DNA of 39,214 nt, taken from positions 90,565 to 129,778 of the forward strand of contig NZ_AOLJ01000027.1 in assembly GCF_000336775.1 (NCBI RefSeq). The letters are read 5' to 3'. The position numbers and the translations under genes are program-made. The DNA is from Haloferax gibbonsii ATCC 33959. Lineage in GTDB: Archaea; Halobacteriota; Halobacteria; Halobacteriales; Haloferacaceae. This document shows, piece after piece, positions 13,189 through 39,214 of the stretch; the first letter of the stretch is position 1, and every line of letters begins with the position of its first letter. The notes under the pieces were generated by a model. It did no database searches and was not told the origin of the DNA. It saw nothing but the letters and a program-made list of their open reading frames with translations.

Positions 13189-13300
13189 TGTGTTCACGTG
13201 CGAAATGTGTAGTGCTGCGGGGATTGGTGTTGCTTCTTGTGGTGTCGTCTCTACTGTCGACCGGGCGTGTTGTGCGTGTAGTCCGAGTTTGCGTCTCGAA

Positions 13301-16387: not shown

Positions 16388-18688
16388 ATGCCAGGCAATA
16401 GTAACACCCACACGGGGACAACACCAGTCGCCCGGTGGTCATTCAACGAGGGAGCCGGGGCAGAAGTCTCAGAAACTAACTCCGGAACGACTGCTGCGAT
16501 TACGTCCGTGGCCATTGAGACGAAGGACAAGCCCAATAGTTCACTACAGTGGCGTGACGGTGTTCAGAATTCCTGTCTTCTCTTTGATGGATACTCAACC
16601 AGTATCGAGACAACTCTCGACAGCGTTGGAGATACCAATGACCAACTGTCGGTCGAGGCATGGGTCGCACCTCGATCACACGGCAGTCACGGAACTGACC
16701 GGTTAGAGGCCGTCGTCAGCCAACACGCACTCTGGAACGACCAAGGGTTTGAATTCGGACTCGGGCCACACGGGTCGTGTTCGTTCCGTGTCGGGTTGGG
16801 TAGTAATACCGCCGAGGCGTCGACCGCTTCTGGGTGTGTCCCAACATACGAGTGGTCGCACATCGTCGGCGTTTTCGATGGCGACGACTCCTCTGTCTCG
16901 GTGTTCGTAAATGGTACCAAAGTTGCATCGAACGACCTCAGTGAGTCGGAACCAATATCCTATGCGGACGTATCCCTCTTGATTGGCAAGAGCAACAAAC
17001 CAACCGAAAAGGCACATCAGACTAACACGGCCGGTGGCGTCTTCGACGTCGGTATGTTCAACGGGTTGATCGACGAGCTGGCACTCTACGAGGACGCGTT
17101 GACAAAGGACCAGATAGCCTCACACTACGAGGAAATTCGCTCACAACACGATGGAGATCTGCCCAAAGCGGGAGTCAAAGAGATTGGTTTGGACCCGTCT
17201 CTGTACAGCGATGATCACCACCGTCCCGAGTACCATCTTATCGCTCCCGGGCACTGGATGAACGAACCTCACGCACCGCTGTACTACGATGGGCAGTATC
17301 ATCTGTTCTACCAGCACAACCCCAAGGGACCGTACTGGGGGAACATCCACTGGGGACATTGGGTCAGTGACGATCTCGTTCACTGGCGTCATCTCCCCGT
17401 CGCGCTCTCACCGGGACCGACTGACCTCGATCCTGATGGTATCTGGTCAGGGAACGCGACGTACAACGAGGATGGAGACCCGGTTCTGTTCTACACTGCA
17501 GGAAACATGGCGAACACGCCGGACCAAGTCGTGGCGACTGCGACACCGGCAGACCCTACCGATTCCGAACTCGTCGAGTGGGAGAAGACAAACGAGGTCA
17601 CCATTGAGAAACCACGCAGAGTCGGGCTTCGGGAGAATGATTTCCGCGACCCGTACGTCTGGCGTGAAGACGGACGGTGGCTCTGTCTCGTCGGTGCAGG
17701 GGTACGAGGCGGTGGCGGAACTGCTCTTGTGTACGAATCGAAGACTCTGGAGGAGTGGCAATTCAAAGGTCATCTCTTCCAGATTGGCCATGACAAGTAC
17801 CCCGAGCTAGGGACCGTCTGGGAACTCCCAATCCTCTTATCACTCGGGGAAGATAGCGACGGCGACGAGAAGCACGTCTTCATCATCAGTCCGGTTGGAG
17901 CGGGCGCCGACGTTGAGGTGTACTACTGGCTCGGCGAATGGGATGCGGACGACTACCGGTTCGTTCCTGACAATGAAGAACCCCAGCGAATTGACTACGG
18001 CGACTTTGGATTCACGGGGCCGAGTGCAATGCGGGACCCGGAGACGGGCCGTTGCATCCTGTTCACCATCGCTCAGGATCAGCGACGACCGCAGGACCAC
18101 TTCGACGCGGGGTGGGCGCACAACGGAGGACTCCCGCTAGAGTTGTACCTAACCGACGACGACCAACTTGGAATCGACCCGATCGAGGAACTCACCTCAT
18201 TGCGCCAAACGGAACTCCTCGACGTTTCCGATCAAACCTTGCGGTCGGCCAACGAGGAACTAATCGGGGTTGCAGGAGATACCCTGGAGATATTGCTCGA
18301 AATCGACTCAGACGGTGCATCGAGGTATGGAATCGAGCTTCGGAAGAGTCCCGACGGAGAAGAACGGACGCTCATCTACTACGACGAGGAGCGTGAGCAC
18401 ATCTACGTCCACCGCGAGGAGAACAGCAGTAACGTCGACGTTCGGTCTGGCTTGGCGAAGCGAAGCTCGCTAGTTCATAGTGGGGAGTTCGAACTGGATG
18501 GTGAGACCCTGAGACTACGCCTGTTCCTCGATAAGTCGATGGTCGAATGCTACGTCCAATCACGAAAAAGTGTTACTACCCGAGTATATCCCACCCGACC
18601 GGACGCGACCGGGCTGGCCCTCTGGGCAGACGGGGGCGTGACTGTCGAAGCGATGCAAGTCTGGGAATTGGAGGGAATCGGGCTGTAG
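16388..18688 (+). CDS. LamG-GH32 protein, no signal peptide
   Basis: 766 residues. Residues about 15-250 form a LamG/concanavalin-like lectin domain (WSFNEGAG, SVEAWVAPRSHG, HIVGVFDGDDSSVSVFVNG). GH32 starts near 275. The nucleophile motif is WMNEPHAP, with Glu293 where the usual Asp sits. RDP is intact (FRDP, 419-422), and the acid/base motif is WELP with Glu479 in place of WECP. A C-terminal beta-sandwich ends in MQVWELEG. There is no Tat or Sec signal, so it is probably cytoplasmic, unlike its relative at 35184, whose first half has the same LamG-GH32 layout. It probably acts on a beta-fructan or fructoside, but the Asp-to-Glu change leaves activity and specificity open. Confidence 0.87.
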   Translation: MPGNSNTHTGTTPVARWSFNEGAGAEVSETNSGTTAAITSVAIETKDKPNSSLQWRDGVQNSCLLFDGYSTSIETTLDSVGDTNDQLSVEAWVAPRSHGSHGTDRLEAVVSQHALWNDQGFEFGLGPHGSCSFRVGLGSNTAEASTASGCVPTYEWSHIVGVFDGDDSSVSVFVNGTKVASNDLSESEPISYADVSLLIGKSNKPTEKAHQTNTAGGVFDVGMFNGLIDELALYEDALTKDQIASHYEEIRSQHDGDLPKAGVKEIGLDPSLYSDDHHRPEYHLIAPGHWMNEPHAPLYYDGQYHLFYQHNPKGPYWGNIHWGHWVSDDLVHWRHLPVALSPGPTDLDPDGIWSGNATYNEDGDPVLFYTAGNMANTPDQVVATATPADPTDSELVEWEKTNEVTIEKPRRVGLRENDFRDPYVWREDGRWLCLVGAGVRGGGGTALVYESKTLEEWQFKGHLFQIGHDKYPELGTVWELPILLSLGEDSDGDEKHVFIISPVGAGADVEVYYWLGEWDADDYRFVPDNEEPQRIDYGDFGFTGPSAMRDPETGRCILFTIAQDQRRPQDHFDAGWAHNGGLPLELYLTDDDQLGIDPIEELTSLRQTELLDVSDQTLRSANEELIGVAGDTLEILLEIDSDGASRYGIELRKSPDGEERTLIYYDEEREHIYVHREENSSNVDVRSGLAKRSSLVHSGEFELDGETLRLRLFLDKSMVECYVQSRKSVTTRVYPTRPDATGLALWADGGVTVEAMQVWELEGIGL

Positions 18689-19705: not shown

Positions 19706-21874
19706 TCAAGGTCGTTCTGTCCGTTTGTTGGGCTCCCATACCGACGCCATCTCCCAGATTTCGAGCGACGCGCGAACATGTCCGTCGTCCGCGAAGAGAT
19801 CGACACCAACGCTGTCGTCGCGCGTGGGGTAAACCCGTGAGGTGAGACACTGCGTCCCGTTGGCGAAAATCTCGATGACAGATCGGTCTAAGAACACTTG
19901 TAGTTCGACCATACCTTGTTCGGTCAAGTCCACCGGCATCGATTGTGGACTATCATTGGCACGAGTATCGAGACTTGCTGTCGACCGATCGACGGTCAGC
20001 GTCCGGTGGAGACGGTCGTACTGAATCTGCGTTGCTTCGGAACCATCGGGTGACTGCCGGAGGATAAGCCCAAACTCGTGTGAGTCACACGGGTCGATAG
20101 TCACCTGTAGTTCCAGTGTGTCACCACTTGTTTCAATGTAGTCCGACCCGTCGGGCGTCACACGAATATCGGCGTATCCGTCGTGGCGTCCACGGAGCAG
20201 GGTTACCTCTGAGGCGGGTTCGATGATTGGGTGTGCTGTCGGCCCCGGCTTGATTCGTCGCGGGAGCGACATCGCACCGGACCACCCGGCGTCCCACTGC
20301 GCACCACGATTCCGGTCTTCCGGGAGCCAACCGAACATAACCCGTCGACCATCGTCGTCGGTAAACGACTGTGGCGCGTAGAAATTCCCGTTATCGAGCA
20401 CCCCGTGCGTGTGCGAGTCGAACTGCTGGTCGTCGTACGTGCCGACGAAGTACACCACCGTAGAGTAGTCGGAGACGTGAAGCAGGTAGTCGTCGCCGAG
20501 TGGAACGAACTCGGGACATTCCCACACTGGTCCGGTTACTCTCCAGTCACCGATATCAAGTGGACCAACGTATTCCCACTCTCGCAAGGAGTCCGACCGA
20601 AAAAGGAGTGCGGCACCCCCGATGCCAGCGATTCCAGACCCGATCAGCTGCAGCCACGATCCGTCTTCGCGCCAGACGCAGTGGTCCCGAAACTCGGCGT
20701 TCCAATCGACCGTCGAAAGGACGTCTGCTTCGGCCGGTACGCCTGTGATGACGGGGTTCTTCGGGTCGGGTTCCCACCTCCTAAGGTCATCGTCCTCACT
20801 CGTTGCGAGACACGGGAGCTGGTCCTGCCCGCTCCCTCCAGTGTACAGCACACGTGGGACACCGCCGTCATCGACGAAACAGCCGGACCAACAGCCGTCT
20901 TCGTCCGACTGACCGGGCTGTGGGGTGAGTGCAACTGGGTAGTCTTCCCAGTAGAGTAGGTCATCGCTGACAGCGTGTCCCCAGTGAATTGTGCCGTGGT
21001 ACGGCCCTGCGGGGTTGTATTGATAGAAGAGATGATAGCGACCCTCCCAGTAGACGAGCCCGTTCGGGTCGTTGAGCCAGTTCGCAGGTGGGGTGAAGTG
21101 GTAAGCGGGGCGGTGTCGTTCGTCTGGAACTGCGGAACGCATCGCGGTGAACTCGGTTCGGCCCTTTGGTCTGCCGACCGCACTGTGAGGATCCACTTCA
21201 GTGACGTACCGGAGTGCGTTCTCCGCGAGCCGCGTTGTCACGTCGTCACCTGTGGAAAACGAGAATGACTGACCGATCCCAATGACGGAGCCCGAATCGT
21301 CGCTACGAGTCCACTCGAATATCGTCTTTTGATCCGGGTGGTCGGTGTCGGTGTCGGGGTCGAACCTGGCCGCAAGTACATCGGCGTGCTGTGGTGTCCA
21401 TCGATCGTATCTCACTGATGCACTCGCTGGAGTGGAATTGACAGACACCCGAAGTGATTCATCGAACCCATCGAAAAGTGGGTGGTCAGTGAAGACTGCT
21501 GAACGGAGATACCCATCCGAATCGGGTGAGGTCGAAGCGAGTACATCTGGCTTCGTCGGTTCGATGCCGAGCCACGAAACGGCTTCCACAGCCCCGAGTG
21601 AGAGTAACAGCCCACCGCCATTATCGAGGAACGAGACGAGTGCTGAGCGAACCGCTTCAGATTCGAATTGTGGCGCTCCGTCGAGGAGCGTATCGGCGTG
21701 CCACCACAGCGCCGAGTACTCCGAGAGGTTGGCCTCGGCCAGCGAAGAGAGCCGAATCGAGGTGGCGGTACACGTCTGTCGGAGCCAATCGAGTGCGTGT
21801 GTCTGTTCAGATGAGAGCCTCCCGTTCGTCACAAATGCAATGGACTCATCTAGTACTACAGGACGTGCTGACAT
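19706..21874 (-). CDS. GH32 fructosidase with ThuA/GATase-like N-terminal domain, intracellular
   Basis: 722 residues from the ATG at 21874, which has a TATA-like TTTAATA about 25-30 nt upstream and no leader. It is a paralogue of the GH32 at 10969. Residues 1-225 form the same alpha/beta domain (YSALWWHAD, GGGLLLSLGAVEA, GIGQSFSFS). GH32 follows: WLNDPNG with nucleophile Asp269, FRDH (395-398) instead of RDP, and WECPE with acid/base Glu452. The C-terminal beta-sandwich includes VIEIFANGTQCLTSRVYP. No signal peptide, so it is cytoplasmic. It is divergent from the GH172 gene, from which a shared control region of 424 bp separates it, and may serve the CUT1 importer as the other paralogue serves the Opp-type importer. 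Confidence 0.9.
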   Translation of the reverse strand: MSARPVVLDESIAFVTNGRLSSEQTHALDWLRQTCTATSIRLSSLAEANLSEYSALWWHADTLLDGAPQFESEAVRSALVSFLDNGGGLLLSLGAVEAVSWLGIEPTKPDVLASTSPDSDGYLRSAVFTDHPLFDGFDESLRVSVNSTPASASVRYDRWTPQHADVLAARFDPDTDTDHPDQKTIFEWTRSDDSGSVIGIGQSFSFSTGDDVTTRLAENALRYVTEVDPHSAVGRPKGRTEFTAMRSAVPDERHRPAYHFTPPANWLNDPNGLVYWEGRYHLFYQYNPAGPYHGTIHWGHAVSDDLLYWEDYPVALTPQPGQSDEDGCWSGCFVDDGGVPRVLYTGGSGQDQLPCLATSEDDDLRRWEPDPKNPVITGVPAEADVLSTVDWNAEFRDHCVWREDGSWLQLIGSGIAGIGGAALLFRSDSLREWEYVGPLDIGDWRVTGPVWECPEFVPLGDDYLLHVSDYSTVVYFVGTYDDQQFDSHTHGVLDNGNFYAPQSFTDDDGRRVMFGWLPEDRNRGAQWDAGWSGAMSLPRRIKPGPTAHPIIEPASEVTLLRGRHDGYADIRVTPDGSDYIETSGDTLELQVTIDPCDSHEFGLILRQSPDGSEATQIQYDRLHRTLTVDRSTASLDTRANDSPQSMPVDLTEQGMVELQVFLDRSVIEIFANGTQCLTSRVYPTRDDSVGVDLFADDGHVRASLEIWEMASVWEPNKRTERP

Positions 21875-22298
21875 ACCACCCTCTGGTTTCGAGTGAGTAT
21901 TAAACGTTGTGCCCCGCAGAATCGTTCTCAAGACGGTTAATCTGGGTTTCACACCTGCTGTGTAGGTTGTGGAACGAGCGGTATTTTAGCACCTCATTAC
22001 AGAGTTAGCTCTGTCATGTCGGACTGATACGTGCCATTGTCCCGCTTCTATGTGTGGTGCTGCACGGGCGTACAATACAAGGAACACGGCATGTGTGAAC
22101 ATCACACCAAGTAAGGACTTAAAATATAACAATCGTTGGTAGATGACCAGGAGTCAACGACCTCGACAGCTACAGTGCTGAAATCAGTCTACTAAACGCC
22201 TCTCACTACAATTATCGACTATCGGATCCCCTCCAATCAGCCGAATTGAGAGAAATGTTTATATGTAGTTGGCTAAAACGAGAGAAGCGGGATACCGT
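21875..22298. promoter_or_regulatory. Divergent control region between GH32 and GH172
   Basis: It holds the TATA-like TATTAAA (21898-21904, read as TTTAATA on the minus strand) for GH32 and TTTATATG (22258-22265), about 35 nt before the GH172 ATG. Between them are two dyads: TTTCAC-N6-TGTG at 21947-21965, about 45-60 bp upstream of the GH32 TATA-like box, and GTGTGA-ACA-TCACAC at 22093-22107, a perfect 6-bp-arm palindrome roughly midway between the two genes. Confidence 0.5.
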
Positions 22299-23387
22299 AT
22301 GCAAACAGGCTTCGGACTAGACAGCATTGCACAGGTTATAGAAGAAGAACAGAGTCGGTCGATCACCGCTGAGAACCCGAGCGGTGCGGTCGGTGCCGGT
22401 GGACAAGCGTCGAGCAACCTCGGCCCCGGTCGAAAAGGGAGCCCCTGTATCGACAACATCGCTCCCGGAGAGACGGTTACGCTCGCCGAGATCGACGGCC
22501 CGGGCGTTATTCGCCACCTCTGGTTCACCGTCTTCGACGAGTCGGACGTCAGCGAGTACGTGTTCCGCGACCTCGTCCTGCGGATGTACTGGGACGACGA
22601 AGACGAGCCGTCAGTTGAGGTCCCCTTTGGCGACTTCTTCTGTAACGGCCTGGCCGAACGGTGTGAGATCGAATCGATGCCCGTCGTATGCGTCCCGGAC
22701 ATCGGGTTCAACTGTTATTTCCCGATGCCGTTTCGCGACCACGCGAAGATTACCATCGAATCAGAACACCCGACCGACATCGCGCCGTTCTTCTACCAGA
22801 TCGACTATTCGTTGGTTCCGGAACTCCCGAAAGACACGGGCTACTTCCACGCGCAGTGGCGGCGTGAGAACCCGACAACCAAGGGAGTTGACTTCACGAT
22901 CGTCGACGATATCGAGGGCGCGGGGCAGTACGTCGGGACGTATCTTGCGTGGACCGCGCTTTCGGGGTACTGGTACGGCGAGGGCGAGGTCAAGTTCTAC
23001 ATCGACGGTGACGACGAGTTCCCCACAATTTGCGGAACCGGAACCGAAGACTACGTCGGCGGCGCGTGGGGCTATGACGATTCCGACTACGGCGGACCGA
23101 AGACTTACTCGACGGCGTTCATGGGATACCCCTTCCACGACACGGGTAACGGACCCGACGGCCACGGTCGACCCCCAAGTCACGGCATGTATCGATGGCA
23201 CATCCCCGACCCGATTCGTTTCACGGAGGACCTCCGCGTTGAGGTCCAGCAGATCGGAGATCATCCCCAGACTCACACGTACTTCGAGCGGTCCGACGAC
23301 GTGTCTGCTGTCTCGTACTGGTACCAGAAAGAACCGCACAACAGCTTCCCCGAGTTCCCCGACCGAGAGGAACGCATCCCCCGATAA
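22299..23387 (+). CDS. GH172 family protein (DUF2961), possible difructose dianhydride or alpha-fructofuranoside hydrolase
   Basis: 362 residues from the ATG at 22299 (an upstream TTG at 22269 is less likely, being almost on the TATA box). The sequence is typical DUF2961: GPGVIRHLWFT, an expected W-Y-rich core, FYIDGDDEFP and ICGTGTEDYVGGAWGY. DUF2961 is now GH172. The first studied member converts inulobiose and difructose dianhydride I, and others cleave alpha-D-arabinofuranosides, using two glutamates about 20 residues apart. Here Glu250 of GTGTEDY and Glu228 or Glu230 of GEGEVKF are the candidates. No signal peptide, so the reaction would be intracellular, after import by the CUT1 system that follows. 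The fructan setting supports a fructose-containing substrate, by inference. Confidence 0.85.
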   Translation: MQTGFGLDSIAQVIEEEQSRSITAENPSGAVGAGGQASSNLGPGRKGSPCIDNIAPGETVTLAEIDGPGVIRHLWFTVFDESDVSEYVFRDLVLRMYWDDEDEPSVEVPFGDFFCNGLAERCEIESMPVVCVPDIGFNCYFPMPFRDHAKITIESEHPTDIAPFFYQIDYSLVPELPKDTGYFHAQWRRENPTTKGVDFTIVDDIEGAGQYVGTYLAWTALSGYWYGEGEVKFYIDGDDEFPTICGTGTEDYVGGAWGYDDSDYGGPKTYSTAFMGYPFHDTGNGPDGHGRPPSHGMYRWHIPDPIRFTEDLRVEVQQIGDHPQTHTYFERSDDVSAVSYWYQKEPHNSFPEFPDREERIPR

Positions 23388-28378: not shown

Positions 28379-30619
28379 TCATTCACTCGATGCCCCGGGT
28401 TCGGCACTATCATACGTGGCTATCGCCTCGCGAAGCTCCGCTTCCGTCGGCTCGCGCTCGTATCGAGTAAAGAAGTCTGCGACGGCGTTTGCGACGACAA
28501 GAGACGGACCATCATCAAGTCCGGCCATCTCCGCCACTGCAAAGCCACCGGCGAAGTAGTTCTCTGCGTTTTTCATCACCACGGAGTCGTCGGCGATTGG
28601 CGTTTCGACGACCGTCGTCTCGGCGTGCGGCGTCGTGAGAATCGCCTCATGGGGCGTGTGCACGACGAATCGTGCGATATCGAGCCGTTTGCAGACGTTC
28701 TCAGTCATCCGAACGAGCGAATTCGTAGTGTCTTCATCGAACAGGCGCGCGTAGCGGGCGACCTGTCGCCAGGTCGCGAACAGTGTCACTGGAACTGTCT
28801 CGCTGAACGCCGAGAGGGATGTAATTCCGGCTGGGAACCTCGTGTCGGAGAGGCGTGTTGTATCTCCAGACATGAAATACACCTGTTCCGGGGGCGATTC
28901 GAGTTTCGGCCACACCTCTGTTCGTATCCCGTCGAGAACCGTCGGGAGGCGCGGAAACGACGCCCATACGCCGATGCTCACATGGGTCGCGTCGTCGAAA
29001 ATCTCGATGAGTGTTCGCACCGGGACCGACTCACAGAGCGACTCCCAGTCTAAGGTTGAATGAACTCCGCCCTCGCTCAGTACGACTTTTCCATCGGTAA
29101 ACTGTACGAGATCCCCCCGAGACGGCTCACCGATCGAAACGAGTCGCTGGTCTGGGAACCGTTCACGGAATTCGTGGAGGAGCGGCTGGCCGTACATTCC
29201 GACGAAGGTCACGTCGTTTCCGAGCGTGGCGGGGACGCCACCGGTGTTGACGCTGTGACCCCCCGCGATGGCGGCTGTCTCAACCCACTCCACGAATGGC
29301 GACTGCGTCGCGGTGTCGGCCTGACCGAGGGCCTCTCTGAGCGCCTCGAAGTCGTTCATCGGTTTGTACGAGTCGGGGCCGGTCCGTTCCGCGACGATTT
29401 GTTTCATGTGGTCGATCGCTCCGTCGAACCCGACCGCGAAAGTTCCGCCACCGAACGACGTGGGCAGCGACTCACGGCACTCACTGAGGTGTCGCTTTGT
29501 CCCGTCGGAGAGCCGTTGGTACGGCGAGTCCATTGAGGGACCATACAGAGTCAATCGGCGCGCTTCGTACTCCTCAGACGTTGTCTTCCACCCGCCAACG
29601 GTAGCCGTGCGGTTGACTCCGTCATCGGTCGGAAGTTCGACTTCGATATGCGCGCGGGTGTCGTACTGCGAGTAGTAATAATCAATCACAGTCCCTCGAA
29701 GATGAACCGCTTCACCAGTATCCGTGTCGTATCCGTCGAATTCGAGTTCGAACGATTCGAGTGGTCGGGTTCGGGCCGCGGCTCGTAAATCGTCGAGACA
29801 GTTGCGTATTCGGAGGTACGTTTCGGGGAAGACGAGTTGAGTGTCGTCGTCCGGTGCTGCGATGGGGGTCGAAAGTGGCCAGACAGAATCCGCGAGAAAC
29901 CGGTCGAACAGCAAGGCGAGTTCCGAATTGGTAATGTGATACCCCATGGGCTCCGACACAGCGTGGCTCGTAAACGACCCCGTCCAAAAGAACCCCTTTT
30001 TTCTGTCGGCTGAGACGACGAACGGTTCCTCGCTCGCGACACCGCGAATCGTTTCTGCTAACGAATGATCCTCCTCGGAGAGGACCCGGTGCTCATTGGA
30101 GAGTTCACCGTCTGACAGTCCCGACAGGACGAGGTTTGTCTGAACGTCGGTATCGCGAGGGAGGACCTCCCGAAGCAGTGAGAGCGATCCTCGAGGTGCG
30201 AGAACGAACAGACTATACTCAGCCGAATTGATGACGCGCTTCAGATATTTTTTGATGCCTACGTTGCTCGTGAACGTGCTCACCCCGCCTTCGACCTCAT
30301 CGACTACTTGGTGAAGCTCATCGAGAATCGCTTCCGTGTTTTCGATCCGCTCACGGATCGGTGAGAGGACTTCAGATGGGTCAACTGCGTAGGCCTCTTT
30401 CGGATACCCGTCGACGACTTTCACGAAACCGCGCGTGCGGAGTGTTTGAATAACGTCGTAGGTGCGTTGCTGCGGGACGCCGCTCGATTCGGCAACGCTC
30501 GACATGGATTGACGTCCACCGCGGACGAGGGCAAGATAAACATCGGTTTCGTACGGTGATAAGCCGACGTGCTCCTCAAGTACCGTGCTCAAGTTATTCT
30601 CGCTTATGTCTCCGGTCAT
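28379..30619 (-). CDS. TrmB-family regulator fused to a degenerate PfkB-like domain (second copy)
   Basis: 746 residues from the ATG at 30619; the open frame extends 49 codons upstream, but those residues are not TrmB-like. The layout repeats that of the protein at 2571: winged helix (MSSVAESSGVPQQRTYDVIQ), linker and TrmB sensor, beta-rich TrmB C-terminal domain (LEFDGYDTDTGEAV, TATVGGW), then a kinase-like domain (FAVGFDGAIDH, GGHSVNTGGVPATLGNDV). The segment matching GAGDAFTAGF is NAENYFAGGF, with Asn687 in place of the catalytic Asp, so phosphoryl transfer is unlikely. It converges with the CUT1 operon (121 bp apart). It probably senses a sugar and controls neighbouring fructan genes, by inference. 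Confidence 0.85.
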   Translation of the reverse strand: MTGDISENNLSTVLEEHVGLSPYETDVYLALVRGGRQSMSSVAESSGVPQQRTYDVIQTLRTRGFVKVVDGYPKEAYAVDPSEVLSPIRERIENTEAILDELHQVVDEVEGGVSTFTSNVGIKKYLKRVINSAEYSLFVLAPRGSLSLLREVLPRDTDVQTNLVLSGLSDGELSNEHRVLSEEDHSLAETIRGVASEEPFVVSADRKKGFFWTGSFTSHAVSEPMGYHITNSELALLFDRFLADSVWPLSTPIAAPDDDTQLVFPETYLRIRNCLDDLRAAARTRPLESFELEFDGYDTDTGEAVHLRGTVIDYYYSQYDTRAHIEVELPTDDGVNRTATVGGWKTTSEEYEARRLTLYGPSMDSPYQRLSDGTKRHLSECRESLPTSFGGGTFAVGFDGAIDHMKQIVAERTGPDSYKPMNDFEALREALGQADTATQSPFVEWVETAAIAGGHSVNTGGVPATLGNDVTFVGMYGQPLLHEFRERFPDQRLVSIGEPSRGDLVQFTDGKVVLSEGGVHSTLDWESLCESVPVRTLIEIFDDATHVSIGVWASFPRLPTVLDGIRTEVWPKLESPPEQVYFMSGDTTRLSDTRFPAGITSLSAFSETVPVTLFATWRQVARYARLFDEDTTNSLVRMTENVCKRLDIARFVVHTPHEAILTTPHAETTVVETPIADDSVVMKNAENYFAGGFAVAEMAGLDDGPSLVVANAVADFFTRYEREPTEAELREAIATYDSAEPGASSE

Positions 30620-30814
30620 GGCTGAGGGTTCTTCTACACCACAATGAGTGTATGGGACGGTTCCAACAACACTACTGAGCGAAATCAAGAACGGTCGATT
30701 TGAATGTGTGACTTGCTCGTCATTGTCTGTTTGACTAGTTTTCCTCCGGTGCAAGTACACAGACACTACGACACATCGTTGTTTAGATGAAGAGACTCAG
30801 TCAGTATGAGGAGT

Positions 30815-31561: not shown

Positions 31562-32959
31562 CTATTTCGGTCCGTTGCCACGGGAGCGCGCACCGACAGA
31601 TGCGGGGAATTGTCCGTCTTGGAGTTCTGTCGTGACACTCGTCTCGGTACCGTCGATCTGGAGTTTGAGACTCGGAGCGAGGGTTCCGCCGAACGCCTCC
31701 TTCAGTTCTTCGCCGTAGAGTCCGAGCGTATCGACGTCTTGGAAGTTCACGAAGCTCTCAACGATACCGTCTTTGCCGTGCGGCATTGCGAGCCACGAAT
31801 ACGTCTGGAACGGCGCTTCCTCCGGGTTAGCGACGACGAGACTGCTCCCGTTGAGCGGCTCCATATCGCTGTCGTAGAGGCCGTCAGCCGCGAACCCGTG
31901 AAGCGCTTCCGGACCCGGCGGCTTACCTTCCTTCCGGAATCTACCGCCCTCGCTCCAGAGCTGAGGCGCGTAGGTGAACTCGTGAGTGATAAAGAAGAGG
32001 TACCACTTGTCCTCGTGGAAGATGAAGTGAGGCCGCTCAGTCTGCTGGCTCACACCGACCGCCTCGAAGATCGGCGGCATCAGCTTCCACTCGGTGAGCT
32101 CGTCGTTCATCGCCTTCGCCGCACCGATGTTACCGTTGTAGTTCAGCGGATTGGTGGGATCGTCGTTTGCCGTCGGCGTGTTCCCCTCGAAAATCATCCA
32201 ATCCTCGCCCGTTTCGGGATGCGTGAAGTACCAAGGGTCGCGGAACGCGGTGATGATCCCACTGGAGTTTTCGAGCTTTTCATACATCTCGCCGTCGGCT
32301 TCGGCGAGGATGTGGTGGGAATCGGATTCGGTGATATGAACGTCCTGCGGGCCGGTTTCGATAGTAGCACCTTTCGCGAGGGCAAGGCGCTGACGTGCTT
32401 CGGGAAGCGCCTCCGCCGCGGTGTAGAAGTGGTAGATCTGCTCTTCGTCTTGGTCGTACATCGCAGACCCGGCCCACGTCTGGTTCCCGAGGAAAGCGTC
32501 TTCGTCGAAGACTTCGCCGCCGAACTGCCATCCCTTCGAGCCTTCGCTCTTGCCGGTGCGCGAGTAGAAGTATCCGACGCGTGCGTAGTTGTGGCGGTCT
32601 CCAGGGACGTTGATCTCAGGTCTGGTCTTGTCGGCAACCAGTGAGAAAATGATCTGATAACCGTCAATGACTGCGATCGAGCCGTCGCGGTTCCGGAGCG
32701 GCCACGTGTCCCAGACCCAGTACCCCGCTTCCTCGGCAATCTGGGTCGGGTCTTCGTCCAGATAAGGGGCAGTGTTTTCGTCCGTGACTTCAATCTCGTT
32801 GACCATCTCTTCGGTCCACTGAGCCGGCTCTTGCACTTCGACCGCTGCTGCGGAGTCGCTCGCTGCTCCGATACCGACTGTAGCGGCGACACCGAGTGCA
32901 CCGGTCGTTTGGAGGAACTTACGACGCCCAAACGTACGCTTGGAGTTGTCTTCCGTCAT
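31562..32959 (-). CDS. Tat-exported GH68 levansucrase
   Basis: 465 residues from the ATG at 32959, chosen because TATTTATC on the minus strand (32987-32994) lies about 28 nt upstream and because it places the Tat motif (GRRKFLQTTG, 11-20) near the N-terminus; there is no lipobox. GH68 triad: nucleophile Asp84 in VWDTWPL, transition-state Asp241 in FRDPWYF and acid/base Glu308 in TERPHF. Such enzymes transfer the fructosyl unit of sucrose to build levan or short fructans, or to water, releasing glucose. It is secreted, so sucrose would be used outside the cell. It lies 213 bp after its paralogue, from which a separate A/T-rich promoter divides it. Confidence 0.92.
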   Translation of the reverse strand: MTEDNSKRTFGRRKFLQTTGALGVAATVGIGAASDSAAAVEVQEPAQWTEEMVNEIEVTDENTAPYLDEDPTQIAEEAGYWVWDTWPLRNRDGSIAVIDGYQIIFSLVADKTRPEINVPGDRHNYARVGYFYSRTGKSEGSKGWQFGGEVFDEDAFLGNQTWAGSAMYDQDEEQIYHFYTAAEALPEARQRLALAKGATIETGPQDVHITESDSHHILAEADGEMYEKLENSSGIITAFRDPWYFTHPETGEDWMIFEGNTPTANDDPTNPLNYNGNIGAAKAMNDELTEWKLMPPIFEAVGVSQQTERPHFIFHEDKWYLFFITHEFTYAPQLWSEGGRFRKEGKPPGPEALHGFAADGLYDSDMEPLNGSSLVVANPEEAPFQTYSWLAMPHGKDGIVESFVNFQDVDTLGLYGEELKEAFGGTLAPSLKLQIDGTETSVTTELQDGQFPASVGARSRGNGPK

Positions 32960-33172
32960 TGCAACTCGATGTAGGACAGTCGTATAGATAAATATTTCCA
33001 TGTTCTAAAATATAATATTATACTAACAACAAGTATAAAATTAGTATAGATGGCACTGGTCGGCTGAACACGAACGTCCCGTGGATCGATGCCGGATTCG
33101 ATACGGAACCTGAGCGATTTGGACGGGGAGTCTACGGAGTGCCCGAACCAGTTCTCGCGATCCGCGGGAGTC

Positions 33173-34531
33173 TCAGCGTGATTGCTTCGGCCCTTTGCCC
33201 GAAGAACCACCCGAGGGCAAGAAGTGGCCGTCGTTGAACTCCGCGACGATTCGTGTCTCGGTACCCTCAAGCTGGAGTTTCAAACTGGGTGCGAGCGTTC
33301 CACCGAAGAGTTCCTTCTGTTCTTCTGGTGGGAGATAACCGACCTCATCGAGGCTGATGGAACCGCGAGAGGTGTCATCGAGACCTCGGAAGTTCTCGAA
33401 ACTCTCTACCAGTGCGTTGTCGCCTTGGGGCATCACGAGCCACGAATAGGCCTGGAACGGCGCTTCTTCGGGGTTCGCGATGACCAGCCCCCCCTCGTTG
33501 AGCGGTTCGTAGTCGCCATACATTGAGTCACTCACGAACCCGTACAGGCCGTCGGGACCATCGAGTCCGGGTGCAAAGGTAAACTTGTGACTGATGGTAA
33601 AGAGATACCACTTCCCGTCGTTGAAGACGAAGTGCGGACGTTCCAGTTGCTGGTTGGTTCCAATCGCCTCCAGCACAGGCGGCAGCAGCTCCCACTCGGT
33701 CAACTCGTCGTTCGTGGCCCGCATGACGCCGATGTTCCCGTTGAAGCTCTGAGGGTTACCAGGGTCTCTGCTTCCCGTCGGGGTGTTTGCCTCGAACACG
33801 ACGAAGTCCTCGCCTGTCTCGGGGTGTTGGAAGTACCAAGGGTCACGGAACGCGTAGACAATGCCTTGTTCCCGGGACTGCTCCAGGGTCTGATACAGCT
33901 CACCGTCAGGCGTTCCCATGATCACGTGTTCTTGCTCACCGGTCAGCTCGACGCCCTGTGGCCCAGTTTCGATAGACGAACCGATTGCGAGCGCGGGACG
34001 CTGTCGAAACTCCGGGAACGAGCTGACGGCAGTGTAGAAATGGTAGATCTGTTCTTCGCCTTGGTCGTACATCGCTGAACCGGCCCACTGATGGTGGCCG
34101 AGCGGTGCCTCGAACGCCTGCCCACCCTCTTGCCACGTCTGGCCGTCCCGTGAGTAGAAGTACCGGATGGTTGCTTCGTTGTGGCGGGCACCTGGAACGA
34201 GGTCATCGGACGCAGTTAGCGAGAAGACGATCTGCCAGCCGTTGATCTTGACGATCGAACCGTCGCGGTTCCGGAGCGGCCACGTGTCCCAAATCCAGTA
34301 GTCGTCGGAGATGGATTCGGAGTTCTCTTCGATGAGCGGTGCGGTAGTGTCGTTGGTCAACGTGATGTTCGCTGCCTCTGCGCGCGTCCACTGGTCGGCG
34401 TCGCTCGTCTCGACGGCAGCTACAGAACCACTCGCCGACAAGAGACCGAGGCCAGCAAGGCCTAAGCCCGCACTGGTCTTTAGAAACTGTCTTCTGTTCG
34501 TTCCCGTCGAACTGTCTTGGTTTGATACCAC
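33173..34531 (-). CDS. Tat-exported GH68 levansucrase (second copy)
   Basis: 452 residues from the GTG at 34531; TTTATT on the minus strand (34557-34562) about 28 nt upstream fits a leaderless start. Tat motif NRRQFLKTS (12-20), hydrophobic stretch, and an A-x-A-type cleavage region (SVAAVE, about 36-41). Triad: Asp82 (IWDTWPL), Asp230 (FRDPWYF), Glu297 (LERPHF). It resembles the downstream copy along its whole length, so tandem duplication is likely. The copies differ in loops (for example GRFRKEGKPPG is absent here), which may change product size. It is divergent from the giant GH32-lectin gene. Confidence 0.92.
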   Translation of the reverse strand: MVSNQDSSTGTNRRQFLKTSAGLGLAGLGLLSASGSVAAVETSDADQWTRAEAANITLTNDTTAPLIEENSESISDDYWIWDTWPLRNRDGSIVKINGWQIVFSLTASDDLVPGARHNEATIRYFYSRDGQTWQEGGQAFEAPLGHHQWAGSAMYDQGEEQIYHFYTAVSSFPEFRQRPALAIGSSIETGPQGVELTGEQEHVIMGTPDGELYQTLEQSREQGIVYAFRDPWYFQHPETGEDFVVFEANTPTGSRDPGNPQSFNGNIGVMRATNDELTEWELLPPVLEAIGTNQQLERPHFVFNDGKWYLFTISHKFTFAPGLDGPDGLYGFVSDSMYGDYEPLNEGGLVIANPEEAPFQAYSWLVMPQGDNALVESFENFRGLDDTSRGSISLDEVGYLPPEEQKELFGGTLAPSLKLQLEGTETRIVAEFNDGHFLPSGGSSGKGPKQSR

Positions 34532-35183: not shown

Positions 35184-38100
35184 ATGACACCAAGGAACAC
35201 GGACGATGAAAGCGGTATCACTCGACGGAACTGGCTGAAGCTACTCGGAATCAGTATTGGCTCAGCGAGCAGTGGAAACACACTCAGCGGTACCGCAACG
35301 GCCTCGGATCCGTCGACATCGATCGGTAGTTGGCCGTTCGATCGGGGTACTGGAGATCACGTCACTGAAACGGTCGGTGGATATTCGAAACACGTTGCGT
35401 ACAAGAGCGATGACGACCCGCTGTGGTTCGATGGACTGGTGAGACATAGCCTCCTCTTCGACGGCTACACCTCGTGGGCAAGTTGGGCGCCGTCCGAGCT
35501 TGCACCAGAGTTCAATCAGGAATTACCGACGCTGACAGTTGCTACGTGGATTGCGCCCCGCTCTCACGGCTCCGAGTCACCGTACATTGACCCAATCATC
35601 GAGAAATGTGACCGAGAAGGACAGACTGGGTTCACGTTCGGAGTCGACAACTTCGGACACTGGACGTTCCAAGTCGGAACAGGAGACGGGTGGCACGAGG
35701 TGTGGATTGAGAGTGGTGAGGAGATTGACGTCTATGAGTGGAACCATCTCGTCGGTGTTTTCGACGGAGATACTGGGTCGCTTCGACTCTATAAGAACGG
35801 TACGCTCGTTGCCGAAACAACGATACCAACCGGTACGATAACTCTAGCGGATGTTCCGCTCAAAGTGGGTCGAAACGCACAGATGGATTATATCGGTGAA
35901 GACGGGGACGGTAAGATATGGAAACAGAACATGTTCAACGGCTCGGTCAGCGAGATTGAAACCTACGCCACGGCCCTGAGCAGTGCAGACGTTAGCAAGA
36001 AATATGATTCCGAGGAGGACGGTATGCCCGCGACGGGGTATCAGGAGCTAACGGTCAACCCTGCTCAGTACGACGACGATTCGTTCCGACCTGAGTATCA
36101 CGCGCTCGCTCCGACTCACTGGATGAACGAGCCGCATGCCCCGCTGTACTTCGAGGGGAAGTACCACCTGTTCTACCAGCACAACCCAAAGGGGTCGTAC
36201 TGGAGACAGATCCACTGGGGTCACTGGGTGAGCGACGATATGGTCCACTGGAATCCGGTCGAAGAAGCGCTTCGACCCGAGGAAGGTATCGACCCAGCCG
36301 GCTGTTGGTCGGGCGACGCGACTATCGACGCAGATGGATACCCGAGACTGTTCTACACGGCGGGCGTCACCAAAGGAACCGACGACCAAGCTGTTGCGAC
36401 GGCCGCATCGACTTACCCCACCGACAGCGACTCAACGCTCACTAACTGGAACAAAGAAGGAGTCGTCATGCAGCAGCCCGACGACCCTGGTCTCCGGAAG
36501 AACCAGTTCCGAGACCCTCACGTCTGGCAGGAGAACGGGAAGTGGTACTGTCTGGTCGGGTCTGGACTGAAAAACGACAACGGTGGAACCGTGCTTGCGT
36601 TTCGCTCGACGGACTGCATCAACTGGAGTTACGAAGGGCGAGCACTCCAGTTGGACGAGCCCTCAGACTATCCATACCTCGGAGACGCGTGGGAGCTTCC
36701 CGTATTACTTCCTGTCGGAACGGACGGTTCCGGCGTCGAAAAACACGTCCTCTGTATCAATCCACAGGGCGGTGATACGGAGGTATTCTACTGGATCGGC
36801 GAATGGGATGCAGGCACGTGCAGTTTCACCCGCGACCACTCGGAGCCACGTCTCATCGATGAGGGTAATTCGCACTTCACGGGGCCGAGCGGGTTCGTCG
36901 ATCCACACACGGGCCGGTCTATTCTTTTTACGATCGCACAGGATTACCGGAGAGAGCAACTGTGGCACGACTCGGGCTGGGCGCACAACACAGGGATGCC
37001 GATGGAGTTGTCGCTACGCGATGACGGACAGTTGGGTATCGCCCCAATTCGAGAGATGAAATCGGCTCGCTCGGAGAAACGCTTGGAAATGAAAGACGCA
37101 CAGCCCGGTCTCGTCAACGACGCACTGAAGAATCTCACCGCAGAGACAGTAGAACTGAAATTGGAGATCGAGTCAAACGGCGCGTCGGAGTATGGTTTCT
37201 ATTCGCACCACTCGCCTGATGGTGAAGAAAAGACGCTTTGTTACTACGACGAAGAGACTGGTGAGATCAAAACCGACCGTACAGAGACCAGTTTAGACGA
37301 CACGTTGATGGCCGCAGAGCGCGACCGAAGCACGCTTACGACCGCGGGACCGGTCGACATTGGCAATGAGCCGCTACGACTGCACGTGTATATCGACAAG
37401 TCGTTGATTGAGTGCTACGTCAACGAACTGAAGAGCGTGACGACGCGCGCATATCCCTCTCGCGGGGACTCCACGGAGTTGCGACTCTATCACGACGGTG
37501 AGATCACTGTCCGGTCGATCGAGATCTGGGAGATGGAGGACATCCAAAACGGGACGCCGAGCGACGAGCAATATCGGCCAGGGTATCACTTCTCGCGAGA
37601 GAGCGGGTGGATGAACGACCCAAACGGATTAGTCTACCAAGACGGGATATACCATCTCTTCTACCAGGCAGGAGAGACGCACCGCCGCTGGGACCATGCG
37701 ACGAGTCGTGACTTAGTCAACTGGACTGAACAGGGAACGAAGATTCCGGATACGAACTCCGTTCAGGCTTACTCGGGCGGTGCAGTCGTCGACAAGACTG
37801 ACACGGCGGGGTTCGGCAGCAGCTCCATCGTCTGCATGTACACGGGACACCACGATGACACTGGGGTCGAAGACCAGCGTCTCGCCTACAGCACTGACAA
37901 CGGCGAAACGTTCACTAAGTTCAGTGGAAACCCGGTCTTAGACGAAGAGACAACAGACTGGCGAGACCCGAACCCGTTTTGGTATGAACCGACATCGAAC
38001 TGGCGCATGGTCGTCGCTCGTGTCGAGGCCAGCGGATCCACACGACCGGCCGGCATCGAGATTTACGAATCCGACGACCTGAAGCAGTGGACGTACCTAA

Positions 38101-39214
38101 ACACGTACGAATCGGGGGGCGCGAGGTGGGAATGTCCCGACCTCTACAGGTTACCGGTCGAGAACACCGGTGAAACCCGTTGGGTGATGACCATCTCTGT
38201 CGACGCAGACCACGTCGAACACCACATCGGTCACTTCAACGGATCAGAGTTTACCGTCGAAGACACAGTCTATGCCGATTCTGGGCGGGACTTCTATGCC
38301 GCACAGACGTGGGCGAACGAACCAGCGATGGATTCTCGCTTAGGGCTCGCCTGGATGAGTCACTGGGACTACGCCCCGAACACGCCGGAAGACGGGTGGA
38401 AAGGCGTGCAGTCGTTCCCCCGTCGACTCACCCTCCGGGGTACTGACAACGGAATCGTCCCTATCCAGCGACCCGATGAAGCGATCGAATCAGAGCGCGA
38501 CAGCACGCTGGCTGAACTCGATACCGAACCGCTCTCGTCAACAGTAGATCCGCTTGCCGGAACAGATGTACGGGGAGAGACGCTCGAACTACTCACGACC
38601 ATCGACCCCAAAGATGCTGATTCCGTGACGCTCAAGTTGCGGAAGGGGATGGCACAGGAGACGAGGGTAACGTACGACGTTGAGATGGAGGAACTGATCG
38701 TCGACCGAAACGATGCTGGACCGTTCTTCGGTGACACGTCAAAAGACCGTGCGAGCCACCCGCTATCGACGCAGAGCGACGGAACTGTCGAACTCCGCAT
38801 ACTCGTTGACAGGAGTTCGGTGACCACGTTCGCTAACGGCGGCGAACAAACGATGACAAACCGAATCTATCCGGACGAGCAGAGCGTTCACGCGTCGATG
38901 ACGGCAAGCGGTGGAACCGCCACCATCGAGAATCTCACCGCGTGGGACTATTCGTCACGTCTCGTTGACGGAGGAGTCTATCGTATCGAAAACCGTCTGT
39001 CCGGGAACGTGCTAGAGGTGAAAGACGGAGAGACTGGAAACGGTGCTGCAGTCCAACAGCGGAGCTGGGAGGACAGTGACAAGCAACGGTGGGTAGTTCG
39101 CGAAGTTACGAGCGGTGTCTACCGCATTGAGAACCTCGACAGCGGCGATGTTCTAGACATCGAAGATGCGTCTACTAACGACGGCTCGAACGCAATGCAG
39201 TGGGAGTGGTGGGG
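35184..39214 (+). CDS. Tat-exported LamG-GH32-GH32-ricin lectin protein, partial at window edge
   Basis: At least 1343 residues with no stop before the window ends. A Tat motif (TRRNWLKLLG, about 13-22) predicts secretion. Then come a LamG lectin domain (about 55-265; TVATWIAPRSHG, HLVGVFDGDTGSLRLYKNG), a first GH32 (WMNEPHAP with Glu316 for Asp, FRDP 442-445, WELP with Glu504) with its beta-sandwich to about 780, a second GH32 (WMNDPNG with Asp812, WRDP with Asp928, WECPDL with Glu983) to about 1258, and a ricin-type beta-trefoil from 1265 (VYRIENRLSGNVLEV, KQRW, VYRIENLDSGDVLDI). It probably binds and degrades levan or inulin outside the cell, two GH32 units of different type working on one chain. 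The end, with at least one more trefoil repeat, is missing. Confidence 0.88.
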   Translation, partial: MTPRNTDDESGITRRNWLKLLGISIGSASSGNTLSGTATASDPSTSIGSWPFDRGTGDHVTETVGGYSKHVAYKSDDDPLWFDGLVRHSLLFDGYTSWASWAPSELAPEFNQELPTLTVATWIAPRSHGSESPYIDPIIEKCDREGQTGFTFGVDNFGHWTFQVGTGDGWHEVWIESGEEIDVYEWNHLVGVFDGDTGSLRLYKNGTLVAETTIPTGTITLADVPLKVGRNAQMDYIGEDGDGKIWKQNMFNGSVSEIETYATALSSADVSKKYDSEEDGMPATGYQELTVNPAQYDDDSFRPEYHALAPTHWMNEPHAPLYFEGKYHLFYQHNPKGSYWRQIHWGHWVSDDMVHWNPVEEALRPEEGIDPAGCWSGDATIDADGYPRLFYTAGVTKGTDDQAVATAASTYPTDSDSTLTNWNKEGVVMQQPDDPGLRKNQFRDPHVWQENGKWYCLVGSGLKNDNGGTVLAFRSTDCINWSYEGRALQLDEPSDYPYLGDAWELPVLLPVGTDGSGVEKHVLCINPQGGDTEVFYWIGEWDAGTCSFTRDHSEPRLIDEGNSHFTGPSGFVDPHTGRSILFTIAQDYRREQLWHDSGWAHNTGMPMELSLRDDGQLGIAPIREMKSARSEKRLEMKDAQPGLVNDALKNLTAETVELKLEIESNGASEYGFYSHHSPDGEEKTLCYYDEETGEIKTDRTETSLDDTLMAAERDRSTLTTAGPVDIGNEPLRLHVYIDKSLIECYVNELKSVTTRAYPSRGDSTELRLYHDGEITVRSIEIWEMEDIQNGTPSDEQYRPGYHFSRESGWMNDPNGLVYQDGIYHLFYQAGETHRRWDHATSRDLVNWTEQGTKIPDTNSVQAYSGGAVVDKTDTAGFGSSSIVCMYTGHHDDTGVEDQRLAYSTDNGETFTKFSGNPVLDEETTDWRDPNPFWYEPTSNWRMVVARVEASGSTRPAGIEIYESDDLKQWTYLNTYESGGARWECPDLYRLPVENTGETRWVMTISVDADHVEHHIGHFNGSEFTVEDTVYADSGRDFYAAQTWANEPAMDSRLGLAWMSHWDYAPNTPEDGWKGVQSFPRRLTLRGTDNGIVPIQRPDEAIESERDSTLAELDTEPLSSTVDPLAGTDVRGETLELLTTIDPKDADSVTLKLRKGMAQETRVTYDVEMEELIVDRNDAGPFFGDTSKDRASHPLSTQSDGTVELRILVDRSSVTTFANGGEQTMTNRIYPDEQSVHASMTASGGTATIENLTAWDYSSRLVDGGVYRIENRLSGNVLEVKDGETGNGAAVQQRSWEDSDKQRWVVREVTSGVYRIENLDSGDVLDIEDASTNDGSNAMQWEWW

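What the first reader, a model, noticed from the sequence alone, without database searches (positions are those of the whole stretch)
35184..39214. Two GH32 domains of different type in one secreted lectin protein
The first GH32 belongs to the WMNEPHAP type with a LamG domain, the second to the classical WMNDPNG/RDP/WECP type, followed by a ricin-like trefoil. Domain order and key residues can be read without a break for 1343 codons. Two GH32 units in one chain with lectin domains on both sides suggest processive or endo-plus-exo attack on insoluble levan.
Basis: partly seen in the sequence, partly recalled or inferred. Interest (0 to 1): 0.72.

Follow-up and report, generated by a model that had tools for sequence, protein, structure and literature searches.

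The report
Secreted twin-engine fructan-cutting enzyme, haloarchaea
A salt-loving archaeon appears to make a secreted sugar-polymer-cutting protein that carries two related but distinct cutting domains between two sugar-binding-like domains; it is an unusual, rare assembly of known parts, and a relative has joined the same two kinds of cutting domain in the opposite order.

Summary
One Tat-exported protein from a haloarchaeon carries LamG, GH32 of a WMNEPH type (D1), GH32 of the classical WMNDPNG type (D2) and a ricin-type trefoil. The window ends at a one-N scaffold join; reading across its exact 120-base overlap gives 1403 codons, a stop and a complete three-repeat trefoil. Haloterrigena turkmenica (pHTUR01) has an intact 74% identical orthologue; a third genome has one too, and Natrinema sp. 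SYSU A 869 a frame-split copy. Both domains keep their catalytic triads and are under purifying selection, so neither looks dead. D1 belongs to a well-supported GH32 clade with Glu as nucleophile and Leu/Met where nearly all others have Cys; the fungal endo-inulinase INU2 shows the same two changes independently. D2 belongs to a haloarchaeal clade with a five-residue-shorter loop 1. Tandem proteins were found in 3 of 391 haloarchaeal genomes. A further genome fuses the same two types in reverse order, and the tree rejects a single origin for its D-type partner: the pairing arose at least twice. Endo-plus-exo action is plausible but unproven; 'processive' and 'insoluble levan' have no evidence. 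A new variant of a known kind.

The parts
35184..39214 (+). Tandem GH32 gene (GTG 35172 also possible); cut by the window end, stop about 60 codons further after a one-N scaffold join
35184..35318 (+). Leader with twin-arginine (Tat) motif ITRRNWLKL, no lipobox Cys; poorly conserved (36% to H. turkmenica)
   Evidence: motif read directly; identity; the Tat assignment is by inspection
35319..36038 (+). LamG / concanavalin A-like domain
   Evidence: PF13385 E 4.7e-20, residues 116-271
36066..37544 (+). D1: GH32 propeller plus C-terminal sandwich, Glu-nucleophile type
   Evidence: PF00251/PF08244; E clade 100/99; AF2 model of this part matches GH32 structures, Z up to 36.4
36129..36131 (+). D1 nucleophile position, Glu316 of WMNEPHAP
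36513..36515 (+). D1 transition-state stabiliser, Asp444 of FRDP
36693..36695 (+). D1 acid/base, Glu504 of WELP (Leu in place of the usual Cys)
37551..38951 (+). D2: GH32 propeller plus C-terminal sandwich, classical Asp type with shortened loop 1 (QAGETHRRWDHATS)
   Evidence: tandem D clade 100/99
37617..37619 (+). D2 nucleophile, Asp812 of WMNDPNG
37965..37967 (+). D2 stabiliser, Asp928 of WRDP
38130..38132 (+). D2 acid/base, Glu983 of WECP
38952..39214 (+). Ricin-type beta-trefoil, first repeat and most of the second; the rest lies beyond the window
   Evidence: PF14200 E 3.7e-19; three QxW motifs at 1301, 1348, 1395 once the overlap is collapsed
16388..18688 (+). Stand-alone LamG-GH32 paralogue of D1 (766 aa, no Tat leader seen), likely intracellular
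   Evidence: PF13385 and PF00251; 53% to D1; in the sister group of the exported E-type branch in the tree

Best explanation
The gene makes a Tat-exported, extracellular fructanase with two catalytic GH32 modules of different ancestry held between a LamG and a ricin-type sugar-binding-like domain. D1 (LamG-GH32, Glu nucleophile, WELP) most likely cuts inside fructan chains in an endo-inulinase-like way; D2 (Asp nucleophile, WECP, shortened loop 1) most likely trims the chains, being nearest in sequence to an exo-inulinase among solved structures. The lectin-like domains keep the protein on the polymer. The oligosaccharides are then imported by the ABC transporters of the cluster and finished inside by the stand-alone GH32 enzymes and ketohexo/fructokinases. 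Shown here: architecture, triads, purifying selection, clade membership, repeated fusion. Inferred: export, catalysis by both modules, endo versus exo roles, binding by LamG and trefoil, import of products.
For: Architecture and orthologues. Triads: D1 WMNEPHA/FRDP/WELPV, D2 WMNDPNG/WRDP/WECPD. dN/dS window versus H. turkmenica: D1 0.082, D2 0.097, LamG 0.087, trefoil 0.128; H. turkmenica versus Natrinema 0.13-0.20 for D1/D2. In 81 GH32 domains, 11 of 11 with Glu have Leu/Met after the acid/base Glu and 69 of 69 with Asp have Cys; one row lacked the motif. INU2 (3rwk) reads WMNEPNG and WEVP in the alignment, and the Glu of that motif is essential for its activity (Park 2003, cited in PMC13416181, passages seen). 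D2's best solved relative is exo-inulinase InuAMN8 (8i12), 270.8 bits. Independent second fusion of the two types in G435. Cluster with GH68, GH32, ABC transporters, PfkB, HAD conserved in H. turkmenica.
Against: No activity has been measured for any member of the D1 clade that I found. Cys after the acid/base Glu is essential in exo-inulinase KcINU1 (C239A inactive; PMC7545266 passages), so D1 could be weak unless the Glu nucleophile compensates. D2 lost one of two conserved Trp of loop 1; W79L kills KcINU1 (same paper), so 'classical exo' may be wrong for D2. INU2 is not a close relative of D1 (87 bits, against 203 for a sucrose-6-phosphate hydrolase), so the endo reading rests on two residues. 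dS is near saturation for the window comparison (1.6-2.7). The D1 structure model does not separate endo from exo relatives (Z 36.4 to 28.4 across all GH32), and the model of the whole tandem failed (pLDDT 31.8).
Confidence: 0.58

Rival explanations
1. Both GH32 domains do the same exo-type job; the tandem gives only avidity and higher local activity.
For: Most GH32 in the cluster look like plain hydrolases; most solved relatives of D1 are invertases and beta-fructosidases; D1 keeps both loop-1 Trp.
Against: The two domains are only 23% identical, sit in different well-supported clades with different active-site signatures, and two different D-type partners were joined to the E type, which plain duplication would not give.
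Confidence: 0.2
2. One GH32 (most likely D1) is catalytically weak or dead and serves to bind fructan.
For: D1 lacks the EC Cys that is essential in KcINU1 and has Glu for Asp.
Against: All three carboxylates kept in every complete member of the E clade seen; D1 is the most conserved part, 80% identity and dN/dS 0.08; INU2 works with Glu and without the Cys.
Confidence: 0.12
3. D1 is an intramolecular fructotransferase that makes a cyclic or dianhydride product, which the GH172-type protein of the cluster opens.
For: A DUF2961/GH172 gene lies in the window; GH172 alphaFFase1 interconverts inulobiose and DFA I (PMC8605356 passages); levan fructotransferase is a GH32 enzyme.
Against: GH172 is in 3 of 9 genomes tested (G000, G262, G358) and was not found in the other tandem genomes G264, G270, G433 nor in G435. 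D1's clade is not close to levan fructotransferase (76 bits against 289.5 for 7vco).
Confidence: 0.07
4. The tandem is an assembly chimera.
For: The window ends at a scaffold join.
Against: The join lies in the trefoil, after both GH32; same architecture in complete plasmid pHTUR01 and in G270.
Confidence: 0.01

Closest known systems
HTUR_RS20055 / WP_187291503.1 of Haloterrigena turkmenica DSM 5511, 'GH32 C-terminal domain-containing protein'
   Same: Same LamG-GH32(E)-GH32(D)-trefoil architecture, 73.5% identity, similar gene neighbourhood
   Different: WMNEPHGP instead of WMNEPHAP; no characterisation found; annotated without noting two GH32
Aspergillus ficuum endo-inulinase INU2 (3rwk/3sc7)
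   Same: GH32 fold; Glu nucleophile and no Cys after the acid/base Glu, as D1
   Different: Single GH32; by sequence nearer D2 than D1 (239.7 bits against 87.1); WMNEPNG not WMNEPH
Exo-inulinase InuAMN8 (8i12)
   Same: Nearest solved sequence to D2, WLNDPNG/FRDP/WECP
   Different: Full-length loop 1 with both Trp; single GH32
BT1760 endo-levanase (6r3r)
   Same: GH32; loop 1 without Trp (PMC6560043 passages), where D2 has lost one
   Different: Keeps Asp nucleophile and Cys; distant in sequence
Multi-catalytic glycosidases of Caldicellulosiruptor such as CelA, GH9-GH48 (PMC6892212, abstract start in search listing)
   Same: Two catalytic modules and binding modules in one secreted chain
   Different: Two different GH families on cellulose; here two clades of one family, on fructan by inference
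GH32 enzymes with modules inserted into the propeller (Pseudalkalibacillus WP_347553238.1, Streptomyces mirabilis plasmid)
   Same: Long GH32 proteins that look like several pieces in a tblastn search
   Different: One GH32 propeller interrupted by other modules, not a tandem

Membership tests
GH32 (D1) | GH32 N and C domains over the curated cut-off | tested here: met
   Two stretches each of PF00251 and PF08244, summed E 1.1e-136 and 6.2e-57
GH32 (D1) | Catalytic triad: nucleophile, RDP Asp, acid/base Glu | tested here: met
   Glu316, Asp444, Glu504 by alignment; nucleophile is Glu, not the usual Asp
GH32 (D1) | Five-bladed propeller plus beta-sandwich | tested here: met
   AF2 model, GH32 part pLDDT mostly 60-95 by block; Z 36.4 over 424 residues to 1uyp
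GH32 (D2) | GH32 domains and triad WMNDPNG/RDP/ECP | tested here: met
   PF00251 residues 802-1088, PF08244 1125-1255; Asp812, Asp928, Glu983
Endo-inulinase of the INU2 kind (D1) | Glu nucleophile and no Cys after the acid/base Glu | tested here: met
Endo-inulinase of the INU2 kind (D1) | Close sequence kinship to INU2 | tested here: not met
   87.1 bits, rank far below 7vco (202.8)
Endo-inulinase of the INU2 kind (D1) | Endo-acting on inulin | not testable with these tools
   needs an enzyme assay
Classical exo-inulinase (D2) | Loop 1 with the WG Trp and following WGH | tested here: not met
   Five residues and one of the two Trp missing in D2 and its near clade; which Trp remains cannot be told
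TIGR01322 sucrose-6-phosphate hydrolase | Score over 356.4 bits for one enzyme | tested here: inconclusive
   392 bits, but summed over two GH32 stretches
NF041092 BfrA beta-fructosidase | Score over 900 bits | tested here: not met
   286.6 bits
Ricin-type beta-trefoil | Three repeats with QxW | tested here: met
   QxW at 1301, 1348, 1395 in the 1403-aa reading; PF14200
LamG/ConA-like binding domain | Fold and sugar binding | tested here: inconclusive
   Profile match over cut-off; binding untested and model of this part poor

The most novel reading that the evidence does not exclude
The Glu-nucleophile LamG-GH32 clade is a distinct, uncharacterised GH32 subgroup that converged on the endo-inulinase active site, and secreted haloarchaeal proteins have at least twice independently welded it to an Asp-type GH32 (once downstream, once upstream), because the two attack different linkages or modes (internal cuts against end trimming, or beta-2,1 against beta-2,6) of branched extracellular fructan, making a one-chain fructan-dismantling machine.
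Probability: 0.35. Interest if true: 0.62.

Novelty: new variant of a known kind. Interest (0 to 1): 0.47.

Why it matters
Single-chain glycosidases with two catalytic modules of one family but different clades are informative: they show which pairs of activities nature finds worth coupling. Here the same pair (Glu-type and Asp-type GH32) was coupled at least twice, in opposite orders, in haloarchaea, where fructan degradation is little studied. It also points to a GH32 clade, seen here in archaea, a marine gammaproteobacterium and a gut Bacteroidota-like contig, with a Glu nucleophile; among the five best solved matches whose alignments I saw for its profile, all have Asp there. That makes the question of what the D-to-E change does directly testable.

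Tried and rejected
Single-origin fusion for the window-order and reverse-order proteins: rejected for the D-type part (lnL 123.4 lower, p-AU 1.1e-78), while the E-type parts do group together (100/99). The group to test was chosen with identities and an earlier tree in hand, so the p value is to be read with that in mind.

Bacterial tandem: of the tblastn hits covering both halves in several pieces, I looked at three. H9 and H13 are single GH32 with inserted modules; H118 gave two halves of one GH32 profile about 300 residues apart. Record MT837307.1, labelled Bacteriophage, has an E-type LamG-GH32 next to two other GH32 as separate genes, behind SusC/SusD-like genes (the SusC/SusD naming is by inspection).

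Viral contigs: no relative found with the D1 alignment. The genome-contig scan gave three D-type loci only, titled Candidatus Roseilinea and Thermoflexales. Chloroflexota search with the E-type profile (11 of 151 genomes at E <= 1e-80) gave 12 matches, none with the Glu motif where a motif was read.

Structure: GH32 part of D1 modelled, LamG part not; Foldseek and VIA rankings do not decide endo versus exo; whole-tandem model useless. Alignments A4 and A5 put rows on the wrong module and were not used for prediction.

Literature: searches for tandem GH32, GH32 with haloarchaea, GH32 with LamG (none), WMNEPH (none relevant), haloarchaeal fructan degradation, multi-catalytic GH32 listed no title or abstract start describing this architecture in the held library; PMC3102087 (passages) counts four GH32 proteins in H. 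turkmenica without mentioning a tandem in the passages seen. I did not open the twelve papers.

Explained away: the frame of 1343 codons is not the whole gene; 1403 after the join.
Full report
What is there. The window is bases 90565-129778 of a 143,919-base contig of a haloarchaeal genome. From ATG 35184 an open frame runs 1343 codons to the window end. Pfam reads LamG, GH32, GH32, ricin-type trefoil. The window stops because the contig has a single N there. The 120 bases on either side of that N are identical, as are 98 and 75 bases at two further one-N joins downstream, so these are most simply scaffold joins of overlapping pieces. Collapsing the overlap gives 1403 residues, a stop and three QxW repeats, i.e. 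one complete trefoil. The leader carries a twin-arginine motif, RRNWLKL, and no lipobox Cys (by inspection).

Conservation. tblastn of the plasmid collection finds the full-length protein in Haloterrigena turkmenica pHTUR01 (73.5%) and in Natrinema sp. SYSU A 869 (71.7%, two pieces). The former is one intact frame of 1413 codons; the latter is split by a frameshift in D1 into 465 and 975 aa. Among 391 haloarchaeal genomes (two candidates scored per genome) the full tandem was found in 3: G000, G264 (same coordinates as pHTUR01) and G270. Among 125 genomes of the family of G264 (up to five scored; overlapping the 391), 9 had a match at 1e-130 or better: G264 and G270 have the intact tandem, G433 the split one (coordinates of the Natrinema record), G435 a reversed one (below), and five matched only with a D-type protein. 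E-type GH32 was found in 4 of the 391 genomes at E <= 1e-125 (three scored per genome): the three tandem genomes and G262. So this is a rare accessory, not a staple of the class.

Two GH32 types. D1 and D2 are 23% identical to each other. In an alignment of 81 GH32 domains from the loci then held (loci that repeat others left out beforehand; domains under 150 bits or shorter than 350 residues dropped), D1 reads WMNEPHA/FRDP/WELPV and D2 WMNDPNG/WRDP/WECPD. All 11 domains with Glu at the nucleophile have Leu or Met after the acid/base Glu; all 69 with Asp have Cys; one row lacked the motif. Later loci added exceptions on the Asp side (G435 tandem D reads ETPD; L113 reads EVPD) but none on the Glu side. 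The Glu domains form one side of a branch with support 100/99 in both trees and include LamG-GH32 proteins of the marine bacterium Catenovulum adriaticum and of a contig labelled Bacteriophage that looks like a gut Bacteroidota fructan locus. The first tree used 47 of the 81 domains, the FRDH-type ones being thinned to 15; the second 46 of 56, ten rows of Chloroflexota loci dropped beforehand. The Glu domains are so one lineage here, not 11 independent cases. The fungal endo-inulinase INU2 shows WMNEPNG and WEVP (alignment) yet lies nearer D2 than D1 in sequence (239.7 bits with the whole protein, best stretch in D2; 87.1 bits with LamG-D1). Thus the pair of changes, Glu for Asp and loss of the Cys, arose in at least two lineages. 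The Glu is essential in INU2 (Park 2003 as cited in PMC13416181, passages). This is the main reason to think that D1 is active and endo-like. It is a two-residue argument.

D2 and its near haloarchaeal relatives lack five residues of loop 1 (QAGE-----xRRWDHATS), including one of the two Trp of the WG...WGH segment; this holds in D2 (4 tandem copies), the three trefoil singles and the five singles L048-L052, but not in the three more distant singles L053-L055. Loop 1 shapes the pocket of endo- and exo-acting GH32 (PMC6560043, passages), and the WG Trp is essential in exo-inulinase KcINU1 (W79L inactive; PMC7545266, passages). So D2's nearest solved sequence being an exo-inulinase does not make it a classical one.

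Both domains look functional. Window versus H. turkmenica: D1 80% identical, dN/dS 0.082; D2 75%, 0.097; LamG 68%, 0.087; trefoil 62%, 0.128; dS 1.6-2.7, so these ratios are rough. H. turkmenica versus Natrinema, where dS is 0.2-0.25 for D1 and D2, gives 0.13-0.20 (same call; that copy is frame-split).

How the protein arose. D2 is sister to stand-alone Tat-GH32-trefoil proteins of 667-682 aa in G358, G344 and G266 (Pfam was run on the G358 one only). D1 belongs with LamG-GH32 proteins, of which a stand-alone form is in the same clusters (window 16388-18688; H. turkmenica; G270; G262). So the tandem is a fusion of two once separate genes, and the four tandem copies form one clade in each half (100/99 each). 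G435 has a different solution: a frame of 1837 codons (1713 from the start that I used) with Tat motif, Asp-type GH32, two malectin domains, LamG-like stretch, Glu-type GH32 and trefoil (Pfam did not report LamG there, the match is to the D1 query). Its Glu-type part groups with the tandem D1 (100/99); its Asp-type part groups with the neighbouring stand-alone gene (100/98), and holding it with the tandem D2 costs 123 lnL units. A D-type partner was therefore joined to the exported E-type at least twice, at opposite ends. The trefoil tree is too weakly supported to say whose trefoil G435 has.

Setting. The window holds two GH68 genes, GH32 genes with an N-terminal extra domain, a DUF2961/GH172 gene, ABC transporters (by inspection), a PfkB kinase, an HAD protein and two TrmB-ketohexokinase fusions. 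In H. turkmenica the order GH68, binding protein, GH32, permeases, ATPase, TrmB, LamG-GH32, HAD, OPRT-like, PfkB, tandem GH32 is contiguous. GH68 was found in 7 of 9 and GH172 in 3 of 9 genomes tested. This fits extracellular fructan turnover with import of oligosaccharides; whether levan or inulin is meant cannot be told.

Verdict. The finding is real and slightly richer than reported. The most likely function is a secreted two-engine fructanase. Endo-plus-exo is plausible; processivity and insoluble levan are not supported. The parts are known; the combination, its repeated origin and the Glu-type clade are what is new here. I found no description of it in the search listings and passages that I saw of the held literature.

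Noticed in passing
L115:4156-9669 + (G435:C46): Reverse-order double GH32 protein: GH32(D), two malectin domains, LamG-like, GH32(E), trefoil; independent D-type partner.
   Followed up: yes
L007:4780, 6067, 7241: Three one-N scaffold joins with exact repeats of 120, 98 and 75 bases on both sides: most likely overlaps left uncollapsed by the assembler.
   Followed up: yes
L007:5054-5446 - (just beyond the window): Fragment of a third LamG-GH32(E) gene, 53% to the stand-alone one over 108 aa, converging on the tandem gene and followed by a TnpB-like gene: remnant of a duplicate.
   Followed up: partly
window 2571-4859 + and 28379-30766 -: Two TrmB regulators fused to a ketohexokinase domain (PF25270), E 7.6e-92 and 1.3e-95: a sugar regulator joined to an enzyme of what may be the same sugar.
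   Followed up: no
window 22269-23387 +: DUF2961 (GH172-type) gene beside ABC transporter genes in a fructan cluster, E 4.4e-91; archaeal role unknown to me.
   Followed up: partly
window 10969-13329 - and 19706-21952 -: GH32 proteins with an N-terminal extra domain of about 270 aa, weakly like DUF4960 (below its cut-off) and with FRDH in place of FRDP.
   Followed up: no
window 31562-33001 - and 33173-34531 -: Two adjacent GH68 genes with Tat-like leaders, probably a tandem duplication.
   Followed up: no
contig C27, L007 and L008: Window G+C 0.556 against 0.692 of a locus on another contig; two Cdc6/Orc1-like genes and a ParA-like gene near by: the contig looks like a secondary replicon, and two orthologues lie on plasmids.
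   Followed up: partly
L039:19869-24190 (Natrinema sp. SYSU A 869): Tandem gene split by a frameshift in D1; sequencing error or decay not decided.
   Followed up: no
L114:16231-17745 + (G435): GH32 with GIVHDPNG and no RDP or ECP motif found, perhaps a changed or inactive enzyme.
   Followed up: no
L080 (MT837307.1): Record labelled Bacteriophage sp. carries SusC/SusD-like genes (by inspection) and three GH32 genes: most likely a mislabelled bacterial contig.
   Followed up: partly
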